DNA from: a virus
Length of the DNA: 64,000 bases
Strand: one strand, 5' to 3'
Virus record (IMG/VR): IMGVR_UViG_3300028412_000004
Span: 61,532 to 125,531 of that record
Of the stretch, positions 51,130 through 62,658 are shown piece after piece. Every line of letters begins with the position of its first letter. The first letter of the stretch is position 1. The position numbers and the translations under genes were made by a program. Below the pieces are notes generated by a model. The model worked only from the letters and a program-made list of their open reading frames with translations, ran no database searches and was not told where the DNA came from.

Positions 51130-51780
51130 ATGGATAATTTAACAGATACAGAGTTAGTTTACATAGGTAGACAGGTTAGAGATACATTCGTCGAGATTGT
51201 TTTCGAAGAGCGTAAGGCTAAGCATAAAAGTCCCAAAAGACCTAACATAAGTGGAATGCTTAACACGCCTGAGTTCTTAAAAAAGATAGGGCGTATTGTT
51301 GCGCAACACGAGCAGGATCCTGTTCGGTTTGCAGCAACCGTAAGAAGAGTTTTACTTAGGAATAATAATAAATTCTACTTCAACATGTACGGCTCGCCTG
51401 CTACGGTGGCGCGTGCTCTGAAGGAAGCTGAATACGAGTTCGAAGTAGTTAACACACACTTCAAGCGAGGGGCGACTTCCGATGACGTAGCAACTAAGGA
51501 ACTACCTGCAGAGTTAGAGTTAGTAAGCCGTATCTCTGTTTTGAAAACGTTCCTTTATCTCAGGAATAAAACGACAGATTTGTCGGACGAAAATATAAAA
51601 GTAATGTCCAGTTCCTTGATGGATTTAGACTCGCTGGCTTGTCTGATTCTTTCTAGAGGAGAGAGCGAATCAATACGGGAGCTACACTACACTAGTGCTA
51701 GCTACGAACTATCCACACGCCCAGACATATTAGCCGCTGTGAAGAAATTAAAACTTAACTGGAAAGGATTACTAGACTGA
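51130..51780 (+). CDS. Unrecognised protein between helicase genes
   Basis: A 216-residue, mainly helical, basic protein. No catalytic or metal motif is seen. A helicase loader or ssDNA-binding role would fit the position just before dnaB but is not supported by motifs. Its last 52 coding bases are part of an exact 99-bp duplication that is repeated 209 bp downstream. Confidence 0.6.
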   Translation: MDNLTDTELVYIGRQVRDTFVEIVFEERKAKHKSPKRPNISGMLNTPEFLKKIGRIVAQHEQDPVRFAATVRRVLLRNNNKFYFNMYGSPATVARALKEAEYEFEVVNTHFKRGATSDDVATKELPAELELVSRISVLKTFLYLRNKTTDLSDENIKVMSSSLMDLDSLACLILSRGESESIRELHYTSASYELSTRPDILAAVKKLKLNWKGLLD

Positions 51781-52036
51781 CATGACACCTGAGATAAAGA
51801 AAATTATAGAGAATCAAGGAGCTACTTGTCTGGGCGAAGGTACTCCTGTAGTCATGCATAACGGAAGTATTAAGAAAGTTGAGGATGTTGTGTGCGGCGA
51901 CTTACTAATGGGTCCTGACAGCAAGCCTAGAAGAGTGATTAGCCGCTGTGAAGAAATTAAAACTTAACTGGAAAGGATTACTAGACTGACATGACACCTG
52001 AGATAAAGAAAATTATAGAGAATCAAGGAGCTACTT
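51729..52036 (+). repeat. Mosaic duplication: dnaB start region twice, with an intein fragment between
   Basis: Bases 51729-51827 and 51938-52036 are identical (99 bp). They cover the end of the upstream gene, the junction and the first 15 codons of dnaB. Between them, 51827-51937 is identical to 52723-52833 (111 bp), the first 37 codons of the dnaB intein. Both joints have at most one base of microhomology. Net effect: a 209-bp insertion that leaves an intact dnaB downstream. Confidence 0.97.
51782..51967 (+). pseudogene. DnaB N-terminus fused to a DnaB N-intein fragment
   Basis: A 61-codon frame created by the mosaic duplication. Codons 1-15 equal the DnaB start, codons 16-52 equal the first 37 residues of the DnaB intein (Cys-Leu-Gly-Glu-Gly-Thr-Pro-Val-Val onward), and codons 53-61 are read out of frame from the duplicated upstream gene. 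It has its own copy of the dnaB leader, so it should be translated. The fragment contains splicing block A but not block B. It may be a harmless by-product, or an N-intein able to interfere in trans, or an assembly artefact. Confidence 0.7.
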
Positions 52037-54291
52037 TCGAGCAGCTACTTCTGTGCTTGATTTATTTTAATAGAGAATTCTACGATAAACATTGTAAGTA
52101 TCTGTGCAAAGCTATTACACCTCCTCAAGAAATGTCTTCTGGTAAAGGCGGGGTTTTTAAATCTGAGGGCGAGGTTAGATTTATTGATGACTTCACAGTG
52201 CCTCAACACAACGCGCTGTTCCATGTGATCGACACGTACTACAGGCAGATAAGCACCTCCAGGCTGAAGACGTCTCCTATTAACGCAGACGTATTTAAAA
52301 TTCTCTTAAGGAACTGTGCCATCGAATCTGATAAAGGAATTAACGAGGACGAGCTTGAAGAAGTATCCGCAATGATGGCGGACATTGTAGAAATGCAGGA
52401 GAATGATATTCTCCTCGCGCTAGTTGCAGAAGGATTTTCATACTGGTTCAAACGCCAACGCGTAGCGCGGCTAACAAATGAAGTGGGGCTGCGCGACGAC
52501 TGGAACCCGGACGATATTCAGAATGAACTTACACACTTCAACCGGGTAGTTGTTGGAAGCACTGACGATATTAAAACCCAATACTTCGGGGAGGGTATTG
52601 ATACGATTCGTAGAATTGTCGATCGCTACCCTACCGGTATTCAATCAGTCGACACTATGCTAGGTGGAGGAGTAGCCAAGAAAGAGCACATGCTTGTAAT
52701 CGCCCCAACTGGTTGTGGTAAATGTCTGGGCGAAGGTACTCCTGTAGTCATGCATAACGGAAGTATTAAGAAAGTTGAGGATGTTGTGTGCGGCGACTTA
52801 CTAATGGGTCCTGACAGCAAGCCTAGAAGAGTGGCTTCGTTGGTTAAAGGTCGTGAGATGTTATACGATGTAAACCAGACAGAAGCAGATGATTACGTGG
52901 TGAACGAGTCACATATCCTGAGCCTTAAAACAAATGTGTCGGACGATGTTTGCAACATCTCTGTTGTGGAATATTTGCAGAAATCCGACGCAGATAGAAA
53001 ATCGTTTAAAGGCTGGATGCCAGAGGGCGGGGTAGAATTTGAAGCTGTTGAGCGTGCATCACGGCTTCAACCTTATAAATTAGGTGCATGGCTGGGATTA
53101 ATACAGAAGAACGATTTCTTTAACCTAACACTAGATGGGAATATCCTGCGAGACAAATACATCCCGGAGGTGTTCCTAAAGGCCGCTAGAAGCGTCCGAT
53201 TAGAGGTTCTGGCCGGGCTGTTAGATGCCGGTGGTTCTTATAACCAACAAGGTGTTTACGAGATCGACTTAGAAGGTAGTAGACTCGTAAGCGATATTAA
53301 ACGACTGGCCAGGTCTTGCGGGTTCTGTGTGACACAGAGTGCGTCTGGAGAACTCAACGGGTCTCAACACACTCGGTTTAGGATAACAGGCCTTGTGAGT
53401 GATATTCCGTGTATGCTACCAGGTAAGGTGGTAACAGCTGGCACCTGTCAGCGTTCTCACATGTGGGATATTACTGTAACTCCGAAAGGTGTAGGCGATT
53501 ACTACGGTTTCACCCTGGAAGGTCCTGATAGATTGTTTCTGTTGGGGGATTACACCGTCACGCATAACACAGTCATGGCGACGCAGCTTGGGTCCAGCTT
53601 TGGGTTGTCTAAACTAAAAGGGATGATTATCACAACCGAGGAGGATGCGGAAGCTCTCGAGCTGCGTATCATATCTGCGCGCTGCGGTATACCCTTCAAG
53701 ATGATCAAGGACGGGCTCGACCGCAGCAAGCTCACACCAGATCAATGCAACCGCGTAGACGAGCTTAGGGCGAACCTAGACGGGTATCTGTTCATAAGGG
53801 AGTGGTCTGTCAACAGTGACGCTAAGAGCTTCACAGAGGAATTGAGAGCAATCTGCGAGAATTTCGTAGACGAGCATGGAACTCTGGACTTCATCATATT
53901 CGACTGGATTGGAGGTGCTTTAACCAAAGACATCTCTAATAATCCGAACATGGTGAGAATCATTTACCAACTCGCCGCGGACTTTATGGCAGACTATGCT
54001 AAAGAGGCTAATATCGCAACCATATCATTCGCGCAAGCGCATCCTACACAATCACTTAACAAACTCAAAGTAGACAATACGACGATATCAGAATGTAAGA
54101 CAATGGGTAACAAAGCCTCATACATGGTGGGTATAACTGCAATGTTTGCTGGGGAAGAAGAAGACGCCACGTTCTCGGACGATCAGTGGTTGTACTTCTC
54201 TAAAGGACGAAAGATCAAAAACATGAAAATACCTATAACCCGTAAATTCGACTTCCAGAAGTTCGAAGACCGGGGAAGGGTGAGGCGGTAG
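51991..54291 (+). CDS. dnaB: Replicative DNA helicase, DnaB-like, with intein
   Basis: A 766-residue precursor that splices to about 484 residues. Residues 1-200 are the helical N-terminal part. Residue 244 is the Lys of Walker A (Pro-Thr-Gly-Cys-Gly-Lys), where a 282-residue intein is inserted; the RecA-fold ATPase resumes with Thr. Walker B is Phe-Ile-Ile-Phe-Asp-Trp near 638-643, and a Gln-Ala-His motif follows near 670. It would unwind the phage fork and load primase. It precedes the initiator and primase genes, forming a replication operon. The ATG at 51991 has the same leader as the truncated copy. Confidence 0.88.
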   Translation: MTPEIKKIIENQGATFEQLLLCLIYFNREFYDKHCKYLCKAITPPQEMSSGKGGVFKSEGEVRFIDDFTVPQHNALFHVIDTYYRQISTSRLKTSPINADVFKILLRNCAIESDKGINEDELEEVSAMMADIVEMQENDILLALVAEGFSYWFKRQRVARLTNEVGLRDDWNPDDIQNELTHFNRVVVGSTDDIKTQYFGEGIDTIRRIVDRYPTGIQSVDTMLGGGVAKKEHMLVIAPTGCGKCLGEGTPVVMHNGSIKKVEDVVCGDLLMGPDSKPRRVASLVKGREMLYDVNQTEADDYVVNESHILSLKTNVSDDVCNISVVEYLQKSDADRKSFKGWMPEGGVEFEAVERASRLQPYKLGAWLGLIQKNDFFNLTLDGNILRDKYIPEVFLKAARSVRLEVLAGLLDAGGSYNQQGVYEIDLEGSRLVSDIKRLARSCGFCVTQSASGELNGSQHTRFRITGLVSDIPCMLPGKVVTAGTCQRSHMWDITVTPKGVGDYYGFTLEGPDRLFLLGDYTVTHNTVMATQLGSSFGLSKLKGMIITTEEDAEALELRIISARCGIPFKMIKDGLDRSKLTPDQCNRVDELRANLDGYLFIREWSVNSDAKSFTEELRAICENFVDEHGTLDFIIFDWIGGALTKDISNNPNMVRIIYQLAADFMADYAKEANIATISFAQAHPTQSLNKLKVDNTTISECKTMGNKASYMVGITAMFAGEEEDATFSDDQWLYFSKGRKIKNMKIPITRKFDFQKFEDRGRVRR
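52723..53568 (+). mobile_element. Intein in DnaB Walker A with LAGLIDADG-type endonuclease remnant
   Basis: The 282-residue element starts with Cys (Cys-Leu-Gly-Glu-Gly-Thr-Pro), has block B Asn-Glu-Ser-His, and ends Tyr-Thr-Val-Thr-His-Asn before Thr+1. Splicing residues are intact. Inside, Val-Leu-Ala-Gly-Leu-Leu-Asp-Ala-Gly-Gly-Ser is a recognisable LAGLIDADG motif, and an earlier Leu-Gly-Ala-Trp-Leu-Gly-Leu-Ile is a weakened first motif lacking its acidic residue. The homing domain is therefore probably inactive. Confidence 0.92.
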
Positions 54292-54321: not shown

Positions 54322-55695
54322 ATGAGTAATAAATTCTTACCTTTAAGGTATGATGATACCTATGTCCTTATAGGAGATATGTTAGCCACACTCATATTCG
54401 AAGCCATCGATTATGAGACAAGGGGGCTACCTGAAGTAGGAAAGCTCGTGGAGCAAGAAAACGAGTTCCACAAGCTGGAAATAAATCCAACAGTCAGCGA
54501 TATGACCTACGGATGGATTCCAACGTCAGCCAGAGTTCTGGTCGGAAAATACTTCAAAAAAGAAAGTATTAGAACAGTAGAGAGAAAATTAAATGCATTA
54601 ACCCGAGAAAAATTCCTACTAAAACGCGCCGGGGTGAGGTGTGGTAGCGAAGGAGGAAGACCCCCCAGTTTGTATAGAATTAACATCAGAAAATACATGC
54701 AAGATTTGGCGGATTTAGAGCCGAGTGTCAAACACCAAACGTGGTGTAAACTTGGTTTATTAAGTCCTTCAGACCTGCTTAAAAAAGAGGGTACTTCACG
54801 ACAAATTGACGCTAACACTTCACGACAAATTGTCGGGACTTCACGACAAATTGTCGCGACTTCACGACAAATTGACGCTTCGCATATATATAAAAAGAAG
54901 AGAAGAAGAGAAGAAGGCTTTTCTCTCTCTTTTTCTAAAGCTTCTGAAACGCAGAAAACAGAGAACTTATCTCCAGAGAATGATGCTTTAAAACTCTCGT
55001 TCAGAAAACTTAACCCTGAATGGAACCCGGCAGTCTGGAACCCAACAACGAGAGCTAAGTTCGACAGGATATCCGACAGATACCCGGAACTCCAAGAGTG
55101 GATTTTCATGCTGAAAAACATGGAGTTTTATTTTAGGCGGGAATTTATTAAAAAAGACTTGCCAAGCACTTTGGAGTTGATCAACTTCAACCTCGTCAAG
55201 TCGAAGAAAGCCATTTTGGAATACTTCGAGTTGGAACGAAAAGAGCTAAAAGCTAGAAAATTAATAGAAGAAGAAAGTAATGAAAACGGAGATTATGGCG
55301 TATGGACGCAACTTAGAGGTTTAGCAAAAATCCAGATAAAGAAATCGATAGTAAGGCATGAAGGAGACGTTGAATTTTACACTCTGAACAAAGGTACCGT
55401 AGACTCGAAGAGCATACTGTTGGAACTGATTGCAGAGGAGAAATTATCAATAGACGAAAACTTCAGAAAAATACTTATTAGCGGCGTCAAAATAGAACTG
55501 GAAAGATCTAAAAACCTGTTGCGTCTTTGCCGGAAGAAATCACTAGAAGAATTAAAAATTTATGGGCTGCGGTCTGAGGATTTAGATTTTGCGGAAACCT
55601 ACCTTTACGAGGCTGGTGAAAGTGTTTATCGCTGTATTCTAGCTGCCCAAAGTATTCCAGAGCCGAGAAACAAAAAAATGAGATGTGAGATATGA
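54322..55695 (+). CDS. Replication initiator (lambda O-like) carrying origin iterons
   Basis: A 457-residue protein. Residues 60-115 form a winged helix-turn-helix (Ser-Ala-Arg-Val-Leu-Val-Gly-Lys-Tyr, Thr-Val-Glu-Arg-Lys-Leu-Asn-Ala-Leu, then Phe-Leu-Leu-Lys-Arg), a DNA-binding domain as in phage and plasmid initiators. Residues 158-186 are four copies of Thr-Ser-Arg-Gln-Ile plus two residues, whose DNA is a set of palindromic iterons. Residues 190-457 are a charged helical C-terminal part that could contact the helicase. It lies between dnaB and primase. Resemblance to lambda O is architectural; sequence homology is not claimed. Confidence 0.7.
   Translation: MSNKFLPLRYDDTYVLIGDMLATLIFEAIDYETRGLPEVGKLVEQENEFHKLEINPTVSDMTYGWIPTSARVLVGKYFKKESIRTVERKLNALTREKFLLKRAGVRCGSEGGRPPSLYRINIRKYMQDLADLEPSVKHQTWCKLGLLSPSDLLKKEGTSRQIDANTSRQIVGTSRQIVATSRQIDASHIYKKKRRREEGFSLSFSKASETQKTENLSPENDALKLSFRKLNPEWNPAVWNPTTRAKFDRISDRYPELQEWIFMLKNMEFYFRREFIKKDLPSTLELINFNLVKSKKAILEYFELERKELKARKLIEEESNENGDYGVWTQLRGLAKIQIKKSIVRHEGDVEFYTLNKGTVDSKSILLELIAEEKLSIDENFRKILISGVKIELERSKNLLRLCRKKSLEELKIYGLRSEDLDFAETYLYEAGESVYRCILAAQSIPEPRNKKMRCEI
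54793..54879 (+). repeat. Four 21-bp palindromic iterons (candidate origin)
   Basis: Copies begin at 54793, 54817, 54838 and 54859; only the first pair is spaced by three extra bases. All share ACTTCACGACAAATTG. The two middle copies contain CGACAAATTGTCG, an inverted repeat around one central base, and the outer two have GACG instead of GTCG. Spacing of 21 bp puts the sites on one face of the helix. They lie inside the initiator gene between its two domains, as in lambda. Confidence 0.95.
54880..54936 (+). other. AT-rich purine/pyrimidine tract, candidate DNA unwinding element
   Basis: Directly after the last iteron comes CATATATATA, then 26 consecutive purines (54892-54917), then 19 consecutive pyrimidines (54918-54936). 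The two tracts are partly complementary, so each strand can fold back. An AT-rich, purine-asymmetric segment beside iterons is where lambda ori melts. The segment is also coding (Lys/Arg/Glu-rich, then Phe/Ser-rich). Confidence 0.6.
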
Positions 55696-55698
55696 GAT

Positions 55699-56961
55699 AT
55701 GAGTGACAACACGTTTGTAGGAACATCAGGAGAGGTAACATCCCAAGAAATACCAAAGAAAATAATGGACCTCGCTGTGGCGCTTTCAAAACGCCACGGA
55801 GACATTTACATAAGCCGGGAATCTGGTGGTATTCACTTGAACATGGCGTCACCGGCACGCTTAGAGATAGACGGGCCGGCAGAGCTAAACAAACGCCACC
55901 TGGCTTTAAACGCTGAGAAATACTTAGGTTTAGGAAAGTGGGCTAAGTTAAAAGGAACATACAACGCAGAGTATACTGCGAATTGTATGAAGTCGAACAA
56001 GGCTTACAGCGTTGAAGAATTGCTGAAGACGCCGACTCTTGCGAAGCGTGGTATTTCCACAGATGGGGAAACCAAAGTACAGGTCAGTGTGTCTGATAAG
56101 AACCTTGTGGATGATGGTTCCGGAAATATGATTCCGGAGCACCCAGGCAAGGTGTTGGCGTTTAAAGATGTGCATGGGTACTGCCCTGGTATCGAATTCC
56201 TAAAAGGGCGTCATTACGACTTGGATGCTTTGACGCGTCAGTTCCGCTGCGGTTACTGTATTCAGGAGTTGGAAGAAAGCCGTGCAGCTGGTCGCTTTTA
56301 CAAGAGGCTGCCTGATGGTTTCAAAGACACCCCGCAAGGTCGTGTTATATTCTTCGTAGATATGATGGGTATACAGAAAGGATGGCAGGCTCGTATAATA
56401 GAGCGAATCCGTGATGAAAGTTTTCACGAGGTGTGGCATCCATACCGTATGGAGTGGACAACTATTAGAGTTAAGCTAGGTAAAGAGTGGAGAACACTTC
56501 CAAAGTTCGCTAACCCAGAGCGCTACGAGTGGAACCCTTCTAAATATAAAACTGCTTTAGGAGCTCAACGTAACTCTATGTTGATGGGGTTAGACGCTGC
56601 TATACGTTGGAATATGGAGCGTGGTCGTATTCAGAACTCTGTATGCATTCTGTCAGAAGGGCCACTAGACGCTGGAAGATTCATGGAGCCTGGTTTGGCG
56701 CTGCTTGGTAAGTTCCTGTCGGAGAACCAAGCTTTAATTATAGCCAAGCATTTCAGAGAGGTTCTGTTTGTGGGAGATAATGACACGGCTGGCCAAAAGA
56801 CCCGTAGACGTATCAAAAGTCTACTCGGTACGAAAGTGAAGCTGCGTGATGTGGAGATTCCCAGTAATTGGGTTAGTCCTATAACCAACAAACAACCGAA
56901 GGACCCAGGCGATCTGAGTTACGAGATGGCTCGTGACTTAGTGGACCCCTACTTATTATGA
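55699..56961 (+). CDS. DnaG-type DNA primase (Toprim)
   Basis: A 420-residue primase. Residues 316-330 hold the Toprim Glu motif (Cys-Ile-Leu-Ser-Glu-Gly-Pro-Leu-Asp-Ala) and residues 356-364 the Asp-x-Asp motif (Val-Gly-Asp-Asn-Asp-Thr-Ala-Gly). A Gly-Tyr-Cys-Pro and Cys-Gly-Tyr-Cys pair near 158 and 188 could bind zinc, although not in the canonical N-terminal place. It would make primers in concert with the DnaB-like helicase. It starts three bases after the initiator stop and overlaps the next small gene by four bases. Confidence 0.8.
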   Translation: MSDNTFVGTSGEVTSQEIPKKIMDLAVALSKRHGDIYISRESGGIHLNMASPARLEIDGPAELNKRHLALNAEKYLGLGKWAKLKGTYNAEYTANCMKSNKAYSVEELLKTPTLAKRGISTDGETKVQVSVSDKNLVDDGSGNMIPEHPGKVLAFKDVHGYCPGIEFLKGRHYDLDALTRQFRCGYCIQELEESRAAGRFYKRLPDGFKDTPQGRVIFFVDMMGIQKGWQARIIERIRDESFHEVWHPYRMEWTTIRVKLGKEWRTLPKFANPERYEWNPSKYKTALGAQRNSMLMGLDAAIRWNMERGRIQNSVCILSEGPLDAGRFMEPGLALLGKFLSENQALIIAKHFREVLFVGDNDTAGQKTRRRIKSLLGTKVKLRDVEIPSNWVSPITNKQPKDPGDLSYEMARDLVDPYLL

Positions 56962-57180: not shown

Positions 57181-59623
57181 ATGAATGAAATGAAATTTAA
57201 TGTCCCTGTGTTGGACGAGTCTGCTATATCAGCAGAGCTTAAGAAAATGCAAACTTCTGGAGAAGCAGAAGTTGTGGAGAGTCCTGATGAGAACTCTCCT
57301 AAGAACGTCAGAAAGACTCGTCGCTACGGTAACCGGCTTTACGTGGCCGGCGAGGGGTCCAGAGATGCCCGCGTCATGTTAATAGCTACTTCACTCCTTG
57401 AGGAGGAGGCTGTTGAAGAACGTACGTTGACTTACGGCAAGTCCATTAAAGAGCAGGCGCGTTACCTAAAAGGCCCTACAGGTGCAATCCTGTCAGACCT
57501 TATGGGTGCGCACGGACTGGAGCTTAAGCATTGCTACTACACTGCCTTGTGTAAGTGGCTCCTCCCCCGACCCAACCGTCTTAAACCTAAAAAAGAAGAT
57601 CTAGCCTGGGGACGCGAAGCTCTTATAAATGAGATACGGGAAATTAACCCGGATGTCATTATATGTTTCGGCAAACCTGTGTTTGACCTGTTGACCGGTC
57701 TCAAACTTAAAATGAGTGACGTAGCCGGCGCGTGGTTTAATCTAGACTTACCAAAGTCAATCGAGCACCAGGTTATGCAGGAGGTTGAGGTTCCTACAAC
57801 GGAGTACGATGAGAACAATAATGCTATACTAGTTAAGGAGATGCAGATGGTTACCACCAGCGTCACTAAACTTAAAAGGCTTAATGCGCGAGTTTACCCG
57901 ATGGAGGATATCACCAAACTGCTGACCAAACCGGAGACTGTTCTTAAGTTCAAAAAGGACTTCATCGAGGTTAAACGTACTCTGGATAAAGTAGACGGTA
58001 TACACGTTGATGAGTATGAGCAGAAGTATGAGGTTATCCGCGATGTTGACGCCTTGCAGGAGTTGATAGCCCGCTTAGCGCGGGATAATAGAACAATCTT
58101 GTCGGTAGACTGTGAATGGCATGGTAATACGCCGATCGACGGTAAGCTCAGATCTTTACAGATCGCGTGGGCTCCTGGAGAGGCAGCTTACATCCGGTTT
58201 ATGGATGATGCGCTCAACTACACCTTCGATGTTCCTTATAAAGTAGCAGGGGCTGTTTTAGGACAACATCTAGATAATGAGGATGTGAGATACGTCGGTC
58301 ATCATCTGGCGGCCGATTTACCTTGGATGTACTACACACTCGGACTCAACTGGTATAAGAAAGCATTCTTAGACACAGAGTTTGCAGAGCAGTGCGTAGA
58401 TGAGCACCAGGAGCTTGGACTAGAACGTCTTGGTATGCATTACACAGATCTCGGGCGTTACGACATCGATCTAACACTATGGGTTAAGAAGAATGCACAC
58501 CTCGTCAAAGATGGTTACGGGTTCATACCCGACGAGATTCTTATACCTTACGCCACTAAAGACGTTGATGTTTGTATAAGGGCTTACCCGCAGATTCTTA
58601 AAAAGATGAGGCAGGATCCTGGTGACAGATTGTTGGCATACTACTACAATATATTCCACCCTTTCGTCACAGATGTGTTCACAAACTTCGCTATAAACGG
58701 ACTTCCTATGGATATCCAGAGGATGGACGAGTTACGCGATGTTTTCCATTATGCTCGTAAAGAAATGAGTAAGGACTTCCGAGAGAAGATGGCTGCCGAG
58801 AGTAATAAAATGCTTGAGGAATATCTTAAGGAAGTAACTGAGCTGGAGGAGCCTGAGCTAACTGTGATGGATATGGAGGAGCGTATTATGAGTGGAGATC
58901 CTGACGCCGCATTCTCTATATTTAAAGAGGCTGTGGGTGTACAGAAATTGAAAGATGCGCAGCCGTTCTACGATCACTTTGTCGTGGCAGCTGATTTCAA
59001 TATAAGATCTCCGGATCAGATGCGTAGGTGGTTGTTTAAGGTTAAAGGTTACACGCCTATCAAATCTACCAACAATAAAGAAAAGGGATTCCCGTCTATG
59101 CCTTGGGAGAAGGTTGCGGACTTGCCGGAGGATCGTCGTAAGGATTATAAACCATCCACCGACAAGCAGTCTTTAGAGATTCTCAAAGCACAACACCAAG
59201 ACCCGACACTAGACTATCTACTTAAGCTTAATGCTGTGGGAAACCTGTGTAAGGCTTTCCTAAAAGAGGCTGATGTAGATGAAGAAGGAGAGACCATCAG
59301 AGAGAATGGCCTTCACTTCTGGTTAGCGTCCGATGGTAAGGTTCATGGTCAGACGAGTACGACGGAAACGGGTCGTCCAAGAAGTTGGAAGCCAAATACG
59401 TTAAACTGGCCAGGCTGGATCAACGATAAGATAGCCACCGGAGTCGGGGATATTATGATTAAGAGACGTGAACAGGGGTGTCTCCCAACACGGTTTAACC
59501 ACTACCTCAGTAAGGACGGGGAAAAGTTCGAAGCTAAGATACCTAGCATTCGTTCCTGCGTTAAAGCGCCGGACGGTTGGTGTCTCGTGGAGAGTGATTA
59601 TCAGACCGCAGAAATACGAGGGT
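57181..59623 (+). CDS. polA: Family A DNA polymerase, exon 1 (UDG-like, 3'-5' exonuclease, start of polymerase domain)
   Basis: The first 814 codons of the phage replicative polymerase. Residues 50-190 resemble a uracil-DNA glycosylase-like domain (Val-Met-Leu-Ile-Ala-Thr, Thr-Ala-Leu-Cys-Lys-Trp, Asp-Val-Ile-Ile-Cys-Phe-Gly-Lys-Pro). Residues 300-480 are the proofreading exonuclease (Val-Asp-Cys-Glu; Gly-His-His-Leu-Ala-Ala-Asp; Tyr-Ala-Thr-Lys-Asp-Val-Asp). The polymerase domain follows and reaches motif A, Ser-Asp-Tyr-Gln-Thr-Ala-Glu-Ile-Arg-Gly. There an apparent TGA stop marks the group I intron junction: T59623 is the last exon base. Joined to exon 2 the precursor is 1321 residues, and 1163 after intein removal. 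Confidence 0.9.
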
Positions 59624-61135
59624 GATTTTGTCGTTGACAAACTACCCAATTTAAAGAAAATTAATACTATGGAATTAGAGAAGAAACAATGTCAGTGCTG
59701 CAGTAACACGTTCGTCCCTAAAAGACGCACGCGTCGCTACTGTTATGATTGCGATGTTAAAACTCGCGAGAAAGCAGCACGTGCTTCTAAGGTGAAAACT
59801 AAGAAGTGTGTACATTGCTCTTCAGAGTTTTCAACGACTCGAGCTACTCAGAAGTTCTGCTCAAAATCTTGCACTGTAAGCTTCCATACAAGGAGGTCTT
59901 TCGCAGACAAGAAGATACTTACTGAGTGCGTCGAGTGTGGGACAGAGTTCGTCCCTATAAGTAAAACAAATAAAACTTGCTCGACTAAGTGTTCAAGAGC
60001 GAGGTCATACAAAAGGAGCAAGGAAGTGAAAGTACCTAAACCTTGTGTTGTTTGTGCAACTGAGTTCCTCCCAAGGCGTGTACTAGACGTATGCTGCTCT
60101 AAGGAGTGTTCCAACAAGCGAGCACGCAAGGCTCAGGACAAGGAGATCACGTGTATAGACTGTGAGGACGTTTTTACACATAGCACTACTGGGACGCCAA
60201 AGAGGTGTCCCAGCTGTAGAGTTAAACCTAAGATGATGTCTCTCAAACCCTGCGAAGGGTGTGGGAAGCATTTCAAACACAACCGCACCGACTACACCCG
60301 GTTCTGCAGTTTAACCTGCGCTACCTTAGGTATACATGCGGAGGGTCTAGCGAACGGTCTAAACAAGGATGTGATACAGGGTATAATGGTAGAGTTCATT
60401 AAGAACGCCAGACACACACCCACGATCGAAGAAGCTTCTGAAGCTGCCGGCGTTGGAGAGAACTACCACTCCCAGGTTTTAAATCTGACCGTGGAAGATC
60501 TGTTCGAGTTAGCAGGGAGAAAGAACAAGAGCCTGTTTCCTAGTAAGTTCGAAGAGCGGGTATACTACAGCATGCTGGATCTTGGGTTTACGAATACTGA
60601 CATCAATCGTCAGAAGTCTTACCCAGGTTTAAAAGGCCCGTCGGGAAGATGGCCTGTTAGATTCGACTTCTATATTAATAGTTTGAACCTCCTGGTCGAA
60701 GCCGACGGGGAGCAACACACCATGGACAAACATCTAATGTTTGACTGTGAAAGCACAAAAGCCTGCGACGCGTTGAAAGACGCGTATGCCGATGAGCACG
60801 GTATCAAGCTGGTTAGAATTCCATACCACCCCACATTTAAGGGTGTCTTTAAATTGGTGAGTCAACTACTCAGCCCCTATATACAGCAATGAATATAGCA
60901 AAGTTCTTTAATTCAGGGGACACCTCCTCGGAGGCAATCCTGAGCCAAGCCGCGGACAATCATGTCCCGGAAGGTGCAACGACTATCCCCGTCGGGGGAG
61001 TAGAGCTAAGCGGCTCGAAATGGGAACCACCCCACGTGGGTGAAGATATAGTCTGGTCTGCAAATATAATACATAAATTGCAGCAGGTGCTTACAGGCAC
61101 CGGGCTTGGGTTTGCGCCCCAAGTTGAACATAACG
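59624..61135 (+). mobile_element. Group I intron (IA2-like) in polymerase motif A, with endonuclease gene
   Basis: Splicing T59623 to T61136 restores Glu-Ile-Arg-Gly-Leu-Ala-Phe-Ile-Ser-Gly-Asp-Glu without gap. The catalytic core lies after the endonuclease gene and resembles the T4 td intron. P7 is GACTAT (60981) with ATAGTC (61048), inside the conserved AAGATATAGTCT. P7.1 (TCCCC/GGGGA), P7.2 (GAGC/GCTC), P8 (CACCC/GGGTG), P9 (CTGCAA/TTGCAG), P9.1 (GGTGC/GCACC) and P9.2 (CTTGGG/CCCAAG) can all form. The 3' end, TTGAACATAACG, ends in the required G. The 5' exon ends in U, but the visible P1 partner (ACCC, 59647-59650) would give U-A rather than U-G. Confidence 0.9.
59669..60892 (+). CDS. Intron-encoded homing endonuclease, Vsr-like EDxHD family, with zinc-finger array
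   Basis: A 407-residue protein inside the intron. Residues 1-210 hold about six Cys-x2-Cys...Cys-x3-Cys modules of 25-35 residues, a DNA-binding zinc array. Residues 245-285 look like a helix-turn-helix (Thr-Ile-Glu-Glu-Ala-Ser-Glu-Ala-Ala-Gly). Residues 290-400 are the catalytic domain: Phe-Glu-Glu-Arg-Val, Arg-Phe-Asp-Phe-Tyr, then Glu-Ala-Asp-Gly-Glu-Gln-His and a later Asp, as in Vsr-like EDxHD enzymes such as I-Bth0305I. It would cut intronless polymerase alleles. The ATG at 59669 is chosen over in-frame ATG and other codons inside exon 1. Confidence 0.85.
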   Translation: MELEKKQCQCCSNTFVPKRRTRRYCYDCDVKTREKAARASKVKTKKCVHCSSEFSTTRATQKFCSKSCTVSFHTRRSFADKKILTECVECGTEFVPISKTNKTCSTKCSRARSYKRSKEVKVPKPCVVCATEFLPRRVLDVCCSKECSNKRARKAQDKEITCIDCEDVFTHSTTGTPKRCPSCRVKPKMMSLKPCEGCGKHFKHNRTDYTRFCSLTCATLGIHAEGLANGLNKDVIQGIMVEFIKNARHTPTIEEASEAAGVGENYHSQVLNLTVEDLFELAGRKNKSLFPSKFEERVYYSMLDLGFTNTDINRQKSYPGLKGPSGRWPVRFDFYINSLNLLVEADGEQHTMDKHLMFDCESTKACDALKDAYADEHGIKLVRIPYHPTFKGVFKLVSQLLSPYIQQ

Positions 61136-62658
61136 TAGCCTTCATCTCAGGAGATGAAGACCTAATTGACCTGGTGACGAAGCCAGATCCTTGTTTTGTA
61201 AAAGTCAAACCCAGCGCCGCCCCGGAAGACGACGCTGTGTGTCGGGTGAAATATCCGAAATACTTGGTAAACTACTCATTCGAAGAAGAAGCTTCTAAGT
61301 TCCTGATGGCTTACGGTAAAGAGGGTGAATTGGTTAAGACATTCACTGAAGAAGACCTACAACGCAATGAGGATGGAACGTGGGCCCATTACAAGCATGA
61401 CCTGCATTGGTCTCTGGCTGAGATGGTGCATAAGGTTCCTCGTGAGAAGCTTCACAACAAGCGAGATAGAGGTGCGGCGAAGGTAGGGAACTTTTCGTGT
61501 TTTCCTGCTCACACCCGTATAACCACTAATAAAGGAGAAAAAGATATTGTTAATGTAACGCTTGTCGATCTCCTGTGGGACGGTCTAGCGTGGGTTTCTC
61601 ACGAAGGTGTACAATATCAAGGAGAACGATATACAATCGAGTATGCAGGCTTTCGAGCCACACCCGACCACGTTGTGTGGCTTGAAGATGGGCGAGAGTC
61701 TTGCTTTGGTGATGCCGCTCTTGAAGACGCGGACATCGCTCGCAGCCACTCGGGTTGCGTGGTGTTACAACAACGACACACAAGCTCGAGTCAGGAGGAT
61801 CAAATTGAGCATCAACGCCAGTTATACAAGCGTGTTGATGAAGAAGGGTCTGTTGGAATAAGAGCTCGTAGCGCGTTCAAGCACTTCAAACTGAAGGTGG
61901 AAAAAGTCTACGACATCATCAACGCCGGCCCTCGGCACCGCTTCACCGCCGAAGGATATCTAGTATCCAACAGTGCATATGGGGCCGTCGGCGCGACGCT
62001 AGAGAGAAAGATCGAATCCGACACCGGAGTCAAACCAGCCGAAGGGACTGGAGAGGCTCTACTACAGGCCTTGGCAGAACGTCAACCTAGAGCCACCGCA
62101 TACTTACTGTCTATGGAAGATATTCCGGAGACCCCAGGTTACATTACAGCAGCATCAGGACGCACACGCCACTTCCACTTACACGACCAAAAGTTGTATG
62201 GGATTAAATCCCGCACGCACCAAGGTATGTTGTCGGCTATGGGACGCGAGTGCAGAAATTTCCCTATGCAAGAGAGTGTTGCTTCTACAGCAGCGCGCGC
62301 TGGCGTATGGCTTCTGGAGTTTGGTCGCAAGAACGGATTACAGGGAAGTCCTATGACAATCCTGTATGACGCCGTAGTAACCAACTGCCCGGAAGAAGAA
62401 AGAGAGATATGGAGCAAAGCACACGACGTGTTCATGTTCCTAAAGAATGGTTGGAGCTACCACGGACGAATATTGACATACCCGATCGACACAGAGTTGA
62501 ATCAGGCATGGTCATGGAAACCCAGTAAGGAAAGGCTGGCCCAACTACAAGACCCTAACTTCAAACCCACGCCCGAAAGGTTTCAACACCTGCTGAAAGG
62601 GCTGGACGCAATGATAGAAGTATACAGCGCGGCGCCAAATCTGGCACTGCGTGACTAA
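61136..62658 (+). CDS. polA: Family A DNA polymerase, exon 2, with O-helix intein
   Basis: The remaining 506 complete codons of the polymerase. The frame is open upstream to an ATG at 60889, but those 82 codons are intron structure, not protein-like. The exon begins Ala-Phe-Ile-Ser-Gly-Asp-Glu-Asp-Leu (end of motif A). It reaches the O-helix at Arg-Gly-Ala-Ala-Lys-Val-Gly-Asn-Phe-Ser, where a 158-residue intein is inserted, and resumes Ser-Ala-Tyr-Gly-Ala. Motif C is Leu-Tyr-Asp-Ala-Val, with Tyr in place of the usual His and Ala in place of Glu. The C-terminus is complete. Confidence 0.9.
61498..61971 (+). other. Mini-intein in the polymerase O-helix
   Basis: A 158-residue element without endonuclease. 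It begins Cys-Phe-Pro-Ala-His-Thr, has block B Ala-Thr-Pro-Asp-His, block F Val-Tyr-Asp-Ile-Ile-Asn-Ala-Gly, and ends Tyr-Leu-Val-Ser-Asn before Ser+1. The penultimate residue is Ser instead of His, a variation known among phage polymerase inteins. Removal joins Asn-Phe-Ser to Ser-Ala-Tyr-Gly. Confidence 0.93.

What the first reader, a model, noticed from the sequence alone, without database searches (positions are those of the whole stretch)
54793..54936. Candidate replication origin inside the initiator gene, built like lambda ori
Four 21-bp palindromic iterons followed by an AT-rich strand-asymmetric tract lie between the N-terminal winged-helix part and the C-terminal part of a 457-residue protein encoded between dnaB and primase. 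Lambda has four iterons and an AT-rich element at the same place in gene O. The iterons encode a Thr-Ser-Arg-Gln-Ile linker, so the DNA serves two functions. An internal O-type origin in a large myovirus beside its own DnaB and primase would be unusual.
Basis: partly seen in the sequence, partly recalled or inferred. Interest (0 to 1): 0.8.

Follow-up and report, generated by a model that had tools for sequence, protein, structure and literature searches.

The report
Lambda-type origin inside phage initiator gene
A large phage whose DNA-copying genes are arranged like those of T5 appears to keep its replication start site inside the gene for the protein that recognises it, as phage lambda does; the design is widespread, but here the protein and its sites differ almost completely between related phages while the neighbouring replication genes stay alike.

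Summary
Four repeats ACTTCACGACAAATTG(A/T)CG (54793-54877, spacing 24/21/21), each centred on a 13-bp palindrome, lie in the linker of a 457-aa ORF between dnaB and primase; CACGACAAATTG occurs exactly nowhere else in the 125.5-kb record. Comparison supports the origin reading. (1) Of 69 phage initiators chosen by protein, 65 carry repeats at this place (3 in a control region); their core is CAAA[AT]TG with variable palindromic arms, the window's design, and lambda's annotated iterons share it. (2) Relatives with the same operon have an ORF here; three hit replication-initiation PHROGs. One has three different palindromic iterons; in a seven-phage sister clade synonymous-codon identity rises from about 0.45 to 1.00 in the linker. 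(3) The four units use identical codons (P about 6e-9 if independent). Binding and initiation are untested. Internal origins beside a phage's own DnaB are known (P22, SPP1), so the kind is not new. New here: a T5-like replisome operon in a phage of at least 125 kb, and an initiator/origin unit without detectable similarity between relatives whose primases are 37-46% identical. 'Myovirus' is unsupported; there is no GC-skew switch.

The parts
54322..55695 (+). Candidate replication initiator P0001, 457 aa, with the origin inside its coding sequence
   Evidence: ORF; position between dnaB and primase; syntenic ORFs of relatives hit replication-initiation PHROGs; no family hit of its own
54352..54696 (+). 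N-terminal domain, predicted winged helix
   Evidence: AF2 with alignment A8: H-H-E-H-H-E-E, pLDDT 83-88 in the helix-turn-helix; Foldseek neighbours mostly HTH/winged helix, none at E<=0.001
54793..54811 (+). Iteron 1, ACTTCACGACAAATTGACG (palindromic core 54799-54811, one pair broken)
54817..54835 (+). Iteron 2, ACTTCACGACAAATTGTCG (core 54823-54835)
54838..54856 (+). Iteron 3, ACTTCACGACAAATTGTCG (core 54844-54856)
54859..54877 (+). Iteron 4, ACTTCACGACAAATTGACG (core 54865-54877, one pair broken)
54882..54936 (+). Candidate unwinding tract: ATATATATAAAAAG, a purine run, then a pyrimidine run; holds an inverted repeat AGAGAAGAAGGCTTTTCTCT
   Evidence: sequence; AT content top 1.3%, purine run top 0.5% of the window
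51991..54291 (+). DnaB-like helicase interrupted by an intein
   Evidence: phrog_19 3.5e-19, Hom_end_hint
51130..51780 (+). 216-aa ORF in a position conserved in all relatives examined; possible helicase loader (inference)
   Evidence: 199-219-aa counterparts in relatives; no family hit
55699..56961 (+). Primase (TOPRIM)
   Evidence: phrog_47 6e-17; 37-46% identical in relatives

Best explanation
54793-54936 is a lambda-type replication origin embedded in its own initiator gene. Inferred steps: a dimer of the 457-aa protein binds each palindromic iteron (CGA-CAAATTG-TCG) with its N-terminal winged helix; four bound dimers form a compact complex; strain opens the adjacent AT-rich, purine/pyrimidine-asymmetric tract; the C-terminal part, directly or through a loader that may be the 216-aa neighbour, brings the phage's own DnaB onto the exposed strand, after which the phage primase and polymerase A extend. 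The linker peptide (TSRQI repeats) is probably a by-product of the DNA sites. Shown by sequence: the array, signs of DNA-level constraint, its place, and the same anatomy in many phage initiators. Not shown: binding, melting, helicase loading, start of replication.
For: Array unique in the record; identical codons and palindrome clustering beyond synonymous shuffles; same place and core as linker iterons of phage initiators (65 of 69 with linker repeats against 3 in control) and as lambda's annotated iterons; syntenic ORFs of relatives hit replication-initiation PHROGs; a different palindromic array in L043, unusual linker palindromes in L040 and L092, and synonymous identity of 1.00 in the linker of the L038 clade; winged-helix model of the N-domain.
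Against: No binding or replication data. P0001 has no significant sequence match to any initiator family; profile scores are marginal and the AF2 model used an alignment made of the family in question. The AT tract is only modestly AT-rich. No GC-skew switch. In L038 the palindrome-cluster statistic is not unusual. One relative-like contig, L102, lacks an initiator-sized ORF between dnaB and primase.
Confidence: 0.8

Rival explanations
1. The iterons are binding sites of the 457-aa protein used mainly to repress or time its own operon; replication starts elsewhere.
For: Sites inside a transcribed operon could block or attenuate transcription; the data show DNA-level constraint, not which function it serves.
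Against: In lambda, P22, SPP1 and pSK41 the arrays at this place in the initiator gene are origins; the array lies about 470 bp inside the gene and is followed by an asymmetric AT tract.
Confidence: 0.1
2. A coding repeat: recent tandem duplication of a TSRQI linker with no DNA function.
For: All spacings are multiples of three and the codons are identical, as after duplication; other coding repeats exist in the record.
Against: Palindromy beyond synonymous shuffles; core and place shared with unrelated initiators that read the repeats in other frames; a different palindromic array or frozen synonymous codons at the same place in relatives.
Confidence: 0.05
3. The array is one of two or more origins or serves only the first rounds; later replication starts elsewhere or is recombination-driven.
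For: The phage has its own polymerase, ligase, SbcCD and a D10/UvsW-like helicase; SPP1 has a second origin away from its initiator gene (129); ICP1's coverage peak shifts late in infection (PMC7145576). This is compatible with the best explanation.
Against: No second CACGACAAATTG array in the record, though the record may be incomplete.
Confidence: 0.35

Closest known systems
Phage lambda ori in gene O (and other lambdoid phages)
   Same: Four iterons, each an inverted repeat with a CAAA-centred core, in the middle of the initiator gene, then an asymmetric AT-rich tract (PMC7466680)
   Different: No sequence similarity of the protein; own DnaB and primase instead of the host's; no lambda P recognised
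Phage P22 gene 18 origin with gene 12 (DnaB)
   Same: Internal origin in an O-like initiator gene next to a phage-encoded DnaB
   Different: About 42-kb temperate phage; gene order initiator then DnaB; no primase or polymerase gene in the stretch read; iteron core differs
SPP1 oriL in gene 38
   Same: Lytic phage, origin inside the initiator gene, AT-rich unwinding element, own loader gp39 and DnaB-type gp40 (PMC6316719)
   Different: 44 kb, host primase and polymerases, second origin oriR
Phage winged-helix initiators with Phg_2220 or DnaD C-terminal domains (L004, L105-L184)
   Same: Winged helix, then linker iterons with CAAA[AT]TG core and palindromic arms, spacing mostly 22-23
   Different: C-terminal domain unrelated; mostly contigs of 10-57 kb; downstream gene often a DnaC- or DnaB-like protein
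RepA_N plasmids (pSK41, pPR9)
   Same: Four Rep boxes centrally in rep, bound by the N-terminal domain; linker dispensable; pPR9 shows exchange of N-domain plus origin (PMC5703833); palindromic iterons around a poly-A tract (PMC7145576)
   Different: Plasmid; no RepA_N (Pfam) hit for P0001
T5 replisome operon
   Same: DnaB-like helicase, primase, family A polymerase in this order, with a D10-type helicase, SbcCD and NAD ligase genes
   Different: T5 has an HNH endonuclease, not an initiator, between helicase and primase; polymerase about 24% identical over the best segment

Membership tests
Lambda-type origin within the initiator gene (functional class) | Several iterons in the middle of the initiator gene | tested here: met
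   Four repeats at codons about 158-186 of 457
Lambda-type origin within the initiator gene (functional class) | Each iteron is an inverted repeat; CAAA-centred core | tested here: met
   CGACAAATTG[T/A]CG; lambda fetched for comparison
Lambda-type origin within the initiator gene (functional class) | Adjacent AT-rich, strand-asymmetric tract | tested here: met
   54882-54936; modest AT content, strong purine bias
Lambda-type origin within the initiator gene (functional class) | N-terminal winged-helix DNA-binding domain | tested here: inconclusive
   AF2 winged-helix topology; Foldseek without E<=0.001; profile scores marginal
Lambda-type origin within the initiator gene (functional class) | Initiator binds the iterons; replication starts there | not testable with these tools
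   Needs footprinting and marker-frequency sequencing
Lambda-type origin within the initiator gene (functional class) | C-terminal part recruits helicase or loader | not testable with these tools
   Own DnaB and a conserved 216-aa neighbour are adjacent; interaction not testable
Lambda O protein family by sequence | Significant match to a Pfam or PHROG replication-O family | tested here: not met
   0 families for P0001; L043's counterpart matches a PHROG named replication initiation O-like at 2e-4
RepA_N initiators | RepA_N domain by Pfam | tested here: not met
   No Pfam hit up to E 10
Phg_2220 / DnaD-domain phage initiators | Phg_2220_C or DnaD-domain C-terminus | tested here: not met
   No hit for P0001; L105 and L119 do hit TIGR02220 and DnaD_dom
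T5-like phages (Demerecviridae) | T5-type replisome gene order | tested here: met
   DnaB - (initiator) - primase - polymerase A; structural genes not compared, so no family membership claimed
Myovirus | Contractile-tail genes | tested here: inconclusive
   No structural PHROG hit among the large ORFs scanned

The most novel reading that the evidence does not exclude
Between a conserved helicase and primase, this phage group carries a hypervariable initiator-origin unit: recognition domain and internal iterons turn over or are exchanged together between relatives (as in plasmid pPR9), so that a T5-like replisome operon is re-addressed to new origin sequences. The window's unit may come from the pool of CAAA[AT]TG-iteron initiators seen in smaller phages.
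Probability: 0.45. Interest if true: 0.6.

Novelty: new variant of a known kind. Interest (0 to 1): 0.45.

Why it matters
It gives a testable origin for a group of large uncultivated phages with a T5-like replisome operon. It also suggests a simple rule, a conserved CAAA[AT]TG centre with variable palindromic arms inside the initiator gene, for finding phage origins from sequence, and it shows origin specificity diverging far faster than the replisome it serves.

Tried and rejected
Direct homologues of P0001: none by tblastn in phages or by pattern scan of viral contigs, none in PDB sequences. AF2 on the single sequence failed (pLDDT 34). A GC-skew switch was sought and not found. I recalled an origin-binding protein between helicase and primase in T5; the T5 record shows an HNH endonuclease there, so this was dropped. 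Homology of P0001 with its syntenic counterparts: no BLAST or profile support in either domain. Its relation to the winged-helix profile is only suggestive (87 against 101). Related large phages by RNA polymerase similarity (Arash, Vibrio D69) gave no match to DnaB or P0001. Intergenic CGACAAATTG pairs in L002, L006 and L008 were not followed.

Full report
Observation. The repeat finder gives four copies at 54790-54878 with spacing 24, 21, 21. The common unit is ACTTCACGACAAATTG[A/T]CG; its centre CGACAAATTGTCG is a near-palindrome, perfect in copies 2 and 3 apart from the middle base and with one broken pair in copies 1 and 4. CACGACAAATTG occurs exactly nowhere else in the 125,531-base record. 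The array lies in a 457-aa ORF between a DnaB-like helicase and a TOPRIM primase. Codon choice argues against a mere coding repeat: all four TSRQI units use the same five codons, P about 5.7e-9 under the phage's codon usage if codons were chosen independently. Recent duplication would also give identical codons, so the palindrome test matters: 1 of 400 synonymous shuffles reaches the observed clustering. The AT-rich tract that follows is modest; its purine/pyrimidine asymmetry is stronger. GC skew is positive over nearly all of the record, with no switch here.

The protein. P0001 has no hit in Pfam, PHROGs, NCBIfam or PDB sequences and no homologue by tblastn in phage records. A single-sequence AF2 model was useless. 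With an alignment to phage-initiator winged-helix domains (A8) the N-domain folds as H-H-E-H-H-E-E with pLDDT 83-88 in the helix-turn-helix. Foldseek neighbours are mostly HTH/winged-helix proteins, including phage replication proteins, but none reaches E 0.001. The alignment came from the family in question, so this is support, not independent proof. Profile tests are weak: best among all ORFs of the record at E 0.005 with one profile, E 0.2 and not best with a larger one; hhalign E 5e-4, probability 31.

The general pattern. A scan for tandem CGACAAATTG in viral contigs hit L004/L005 and L007, where the repeats lie in the linker of other phage initiator-like proteins and are partly read in other frames. 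tblastn with the L004 protein found 511 phage records, many annotated as replication initiation. Of twelve fetched examples most carry repeats of about 21-25 bp just after the winged helix, and several then show 12-mer ACAGAGA-type repeats. A survey of 69 non-redundant viral-contig loci chosen by protein similarity has linker repeats in 65, against 3 in an equal stretch of winged-helix coding DNA. Their centres are commonly CAAA[AT]TG with palindromic arms that differ from phage to phage; the strict motif occurs at least twice in 35 of 69 linkers, in none of the controls and in 6.6% of synonymous shuffles, with spacing mostly 22-23. In the window four of seven plus-strand matches to this motif are the iterons. 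Lambda's annotated iterons have the same centre and are followed by ACAAAAGAAAAAAGAAAAG. The motif was defined after seeing the window's core, but the survey loci were picked by protein, not by DNA; the 69 loci are not independent of one another.

Relatives of this phage. Polymerase and primase alignments brought in related contigs with the same operon: helicase, about 212 aa, DnaB without intein, a 344-542-aa ORF, primase, polymerase A. That ORF hits 'replication initiation protein' or 'replication initiation O-like' PHROGs in L092 (3e-6), L043 (2e-4) and L040 (4e-3). L043 has three different palindromic iterons, GTGTGCCCTCCAGGGCACAC and two variants, period 33/32, in the linker and then the most AT-rich 40 bp of the gene; none of 400 synonymous shuffles matches its clustering. 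L092 (4 of 400) and L040 (6 of 400) also have unusual linker palindromes; L038 does not by this statistic. In the clade L038/L039/L042/L095/L096/L097/L100, however, synonymous identity is about 0.45 in the preceding codons and 1.00 at codons 143-157, the linker with GGAGAGTATTAACTCTCC and a second inverted repeat TTCTCTGgAAATCAGAGAA; the only other such block overlaps the start of the primase gene. DNA in this linker is therefore under selection of its own. L102, on a 212-kb contig, has no initiator-sized ORF there.

Turnover. Against relatives the window's helicase is 40-52%, primase 37-46% and the DnaB C-part 29-34% identical, while the initiator gives no match; among relatives L038, L040, L043, L092 and L100 the initiator is also by far the least alike. 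Iteron sequences differ correspondingly. This fits divergence or exchange of initiator and origin as one unit; pPR9 is a documented case in plasmids (PMC5703833).

Mechanism and known systems. The best explanation is a lambda-like origin: initiator dimers on palindromic iterons, opening of the adjacent asymmetric tract, loading of the phage's DnaB. Every biochemical step is inferred. Lambda (PMC7466680), P22, SPP1 (PMC6316719) and RepA_N plasmids (PMC5703833) work this way or share the anatomy; P22 and SPP1 also encode DnaB. T5 shares the gene order but has an HNH endonuclease where the initiator sits here. So this is a new variant of a known kind: a sequence-unrelated initiator in a T5-like replisome operon of a phage that also encodes RNA polymerase beta-like proteins.

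Noticed in passing
51729-52036 and 52723-52833: A 99-nt stretch (end of the 216-aa ORF plus start of dnaB) occurs twice, 100% identical, 209 nt apart, and the 111 nt between the copies are an exact copy of the first 111 nt of the dnaB intein. Looks like an assembly artefact or a recombination scar.
   Followed up: partly
51991-54291: The dnaB-like gene holds an intein with a homing-endonuclease domain; DnaB ORFs of relatives (474-504 aa) lack it.
   Followed up: partly
57181-62658: Polymerase A is split: N part with a UDG-like domain and exonuclease (57181-59625), a zinc-finger, endonuclease-like ORF (59468-60892) and a C part that seems to hold an intein (60889-62658); relatives mostly have one ORF of 1054-1106 aa.
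   Followed up: no
L029:1596-2747 and L029:10056-13061 (record positions 41.6 and 50.1 kb): RNA polymerase beta-like proteins, the second apparently fused to or interrupted by other sequence; nearest annotated relative Salmonella phage Arash, 34% identity.
   Followed up: no
L102:4789-5965: A 212-kb viral contig with related helicase, DnaB and primase but no initiator-sized ORF between DnaB and primase.
   Followed up: no
L104:5450-5720: A contig of a Verrucomicrobia metagenome bin holds a relative of the primase, with many CTTTTGTCC / GGACAAAAG repeats just upstream; possibly another iteron origin.
   Followed up: no
L115, L116, L117, L118, L119 and similar loci, just after the iterons: Repeated ACAGAGA[C/T]TACT-like 12-mers follow the iterons in many phage initiator genes, encoding TETTETT-like peptides; perhaps part of the unwinding element.
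   Followed up: no
L002:4951-4981, L006:3413-3443, L008:3878-3908: Pairs of CGACAAATTGTC outside any long ORF in other viral contigs.
   Followed up: no
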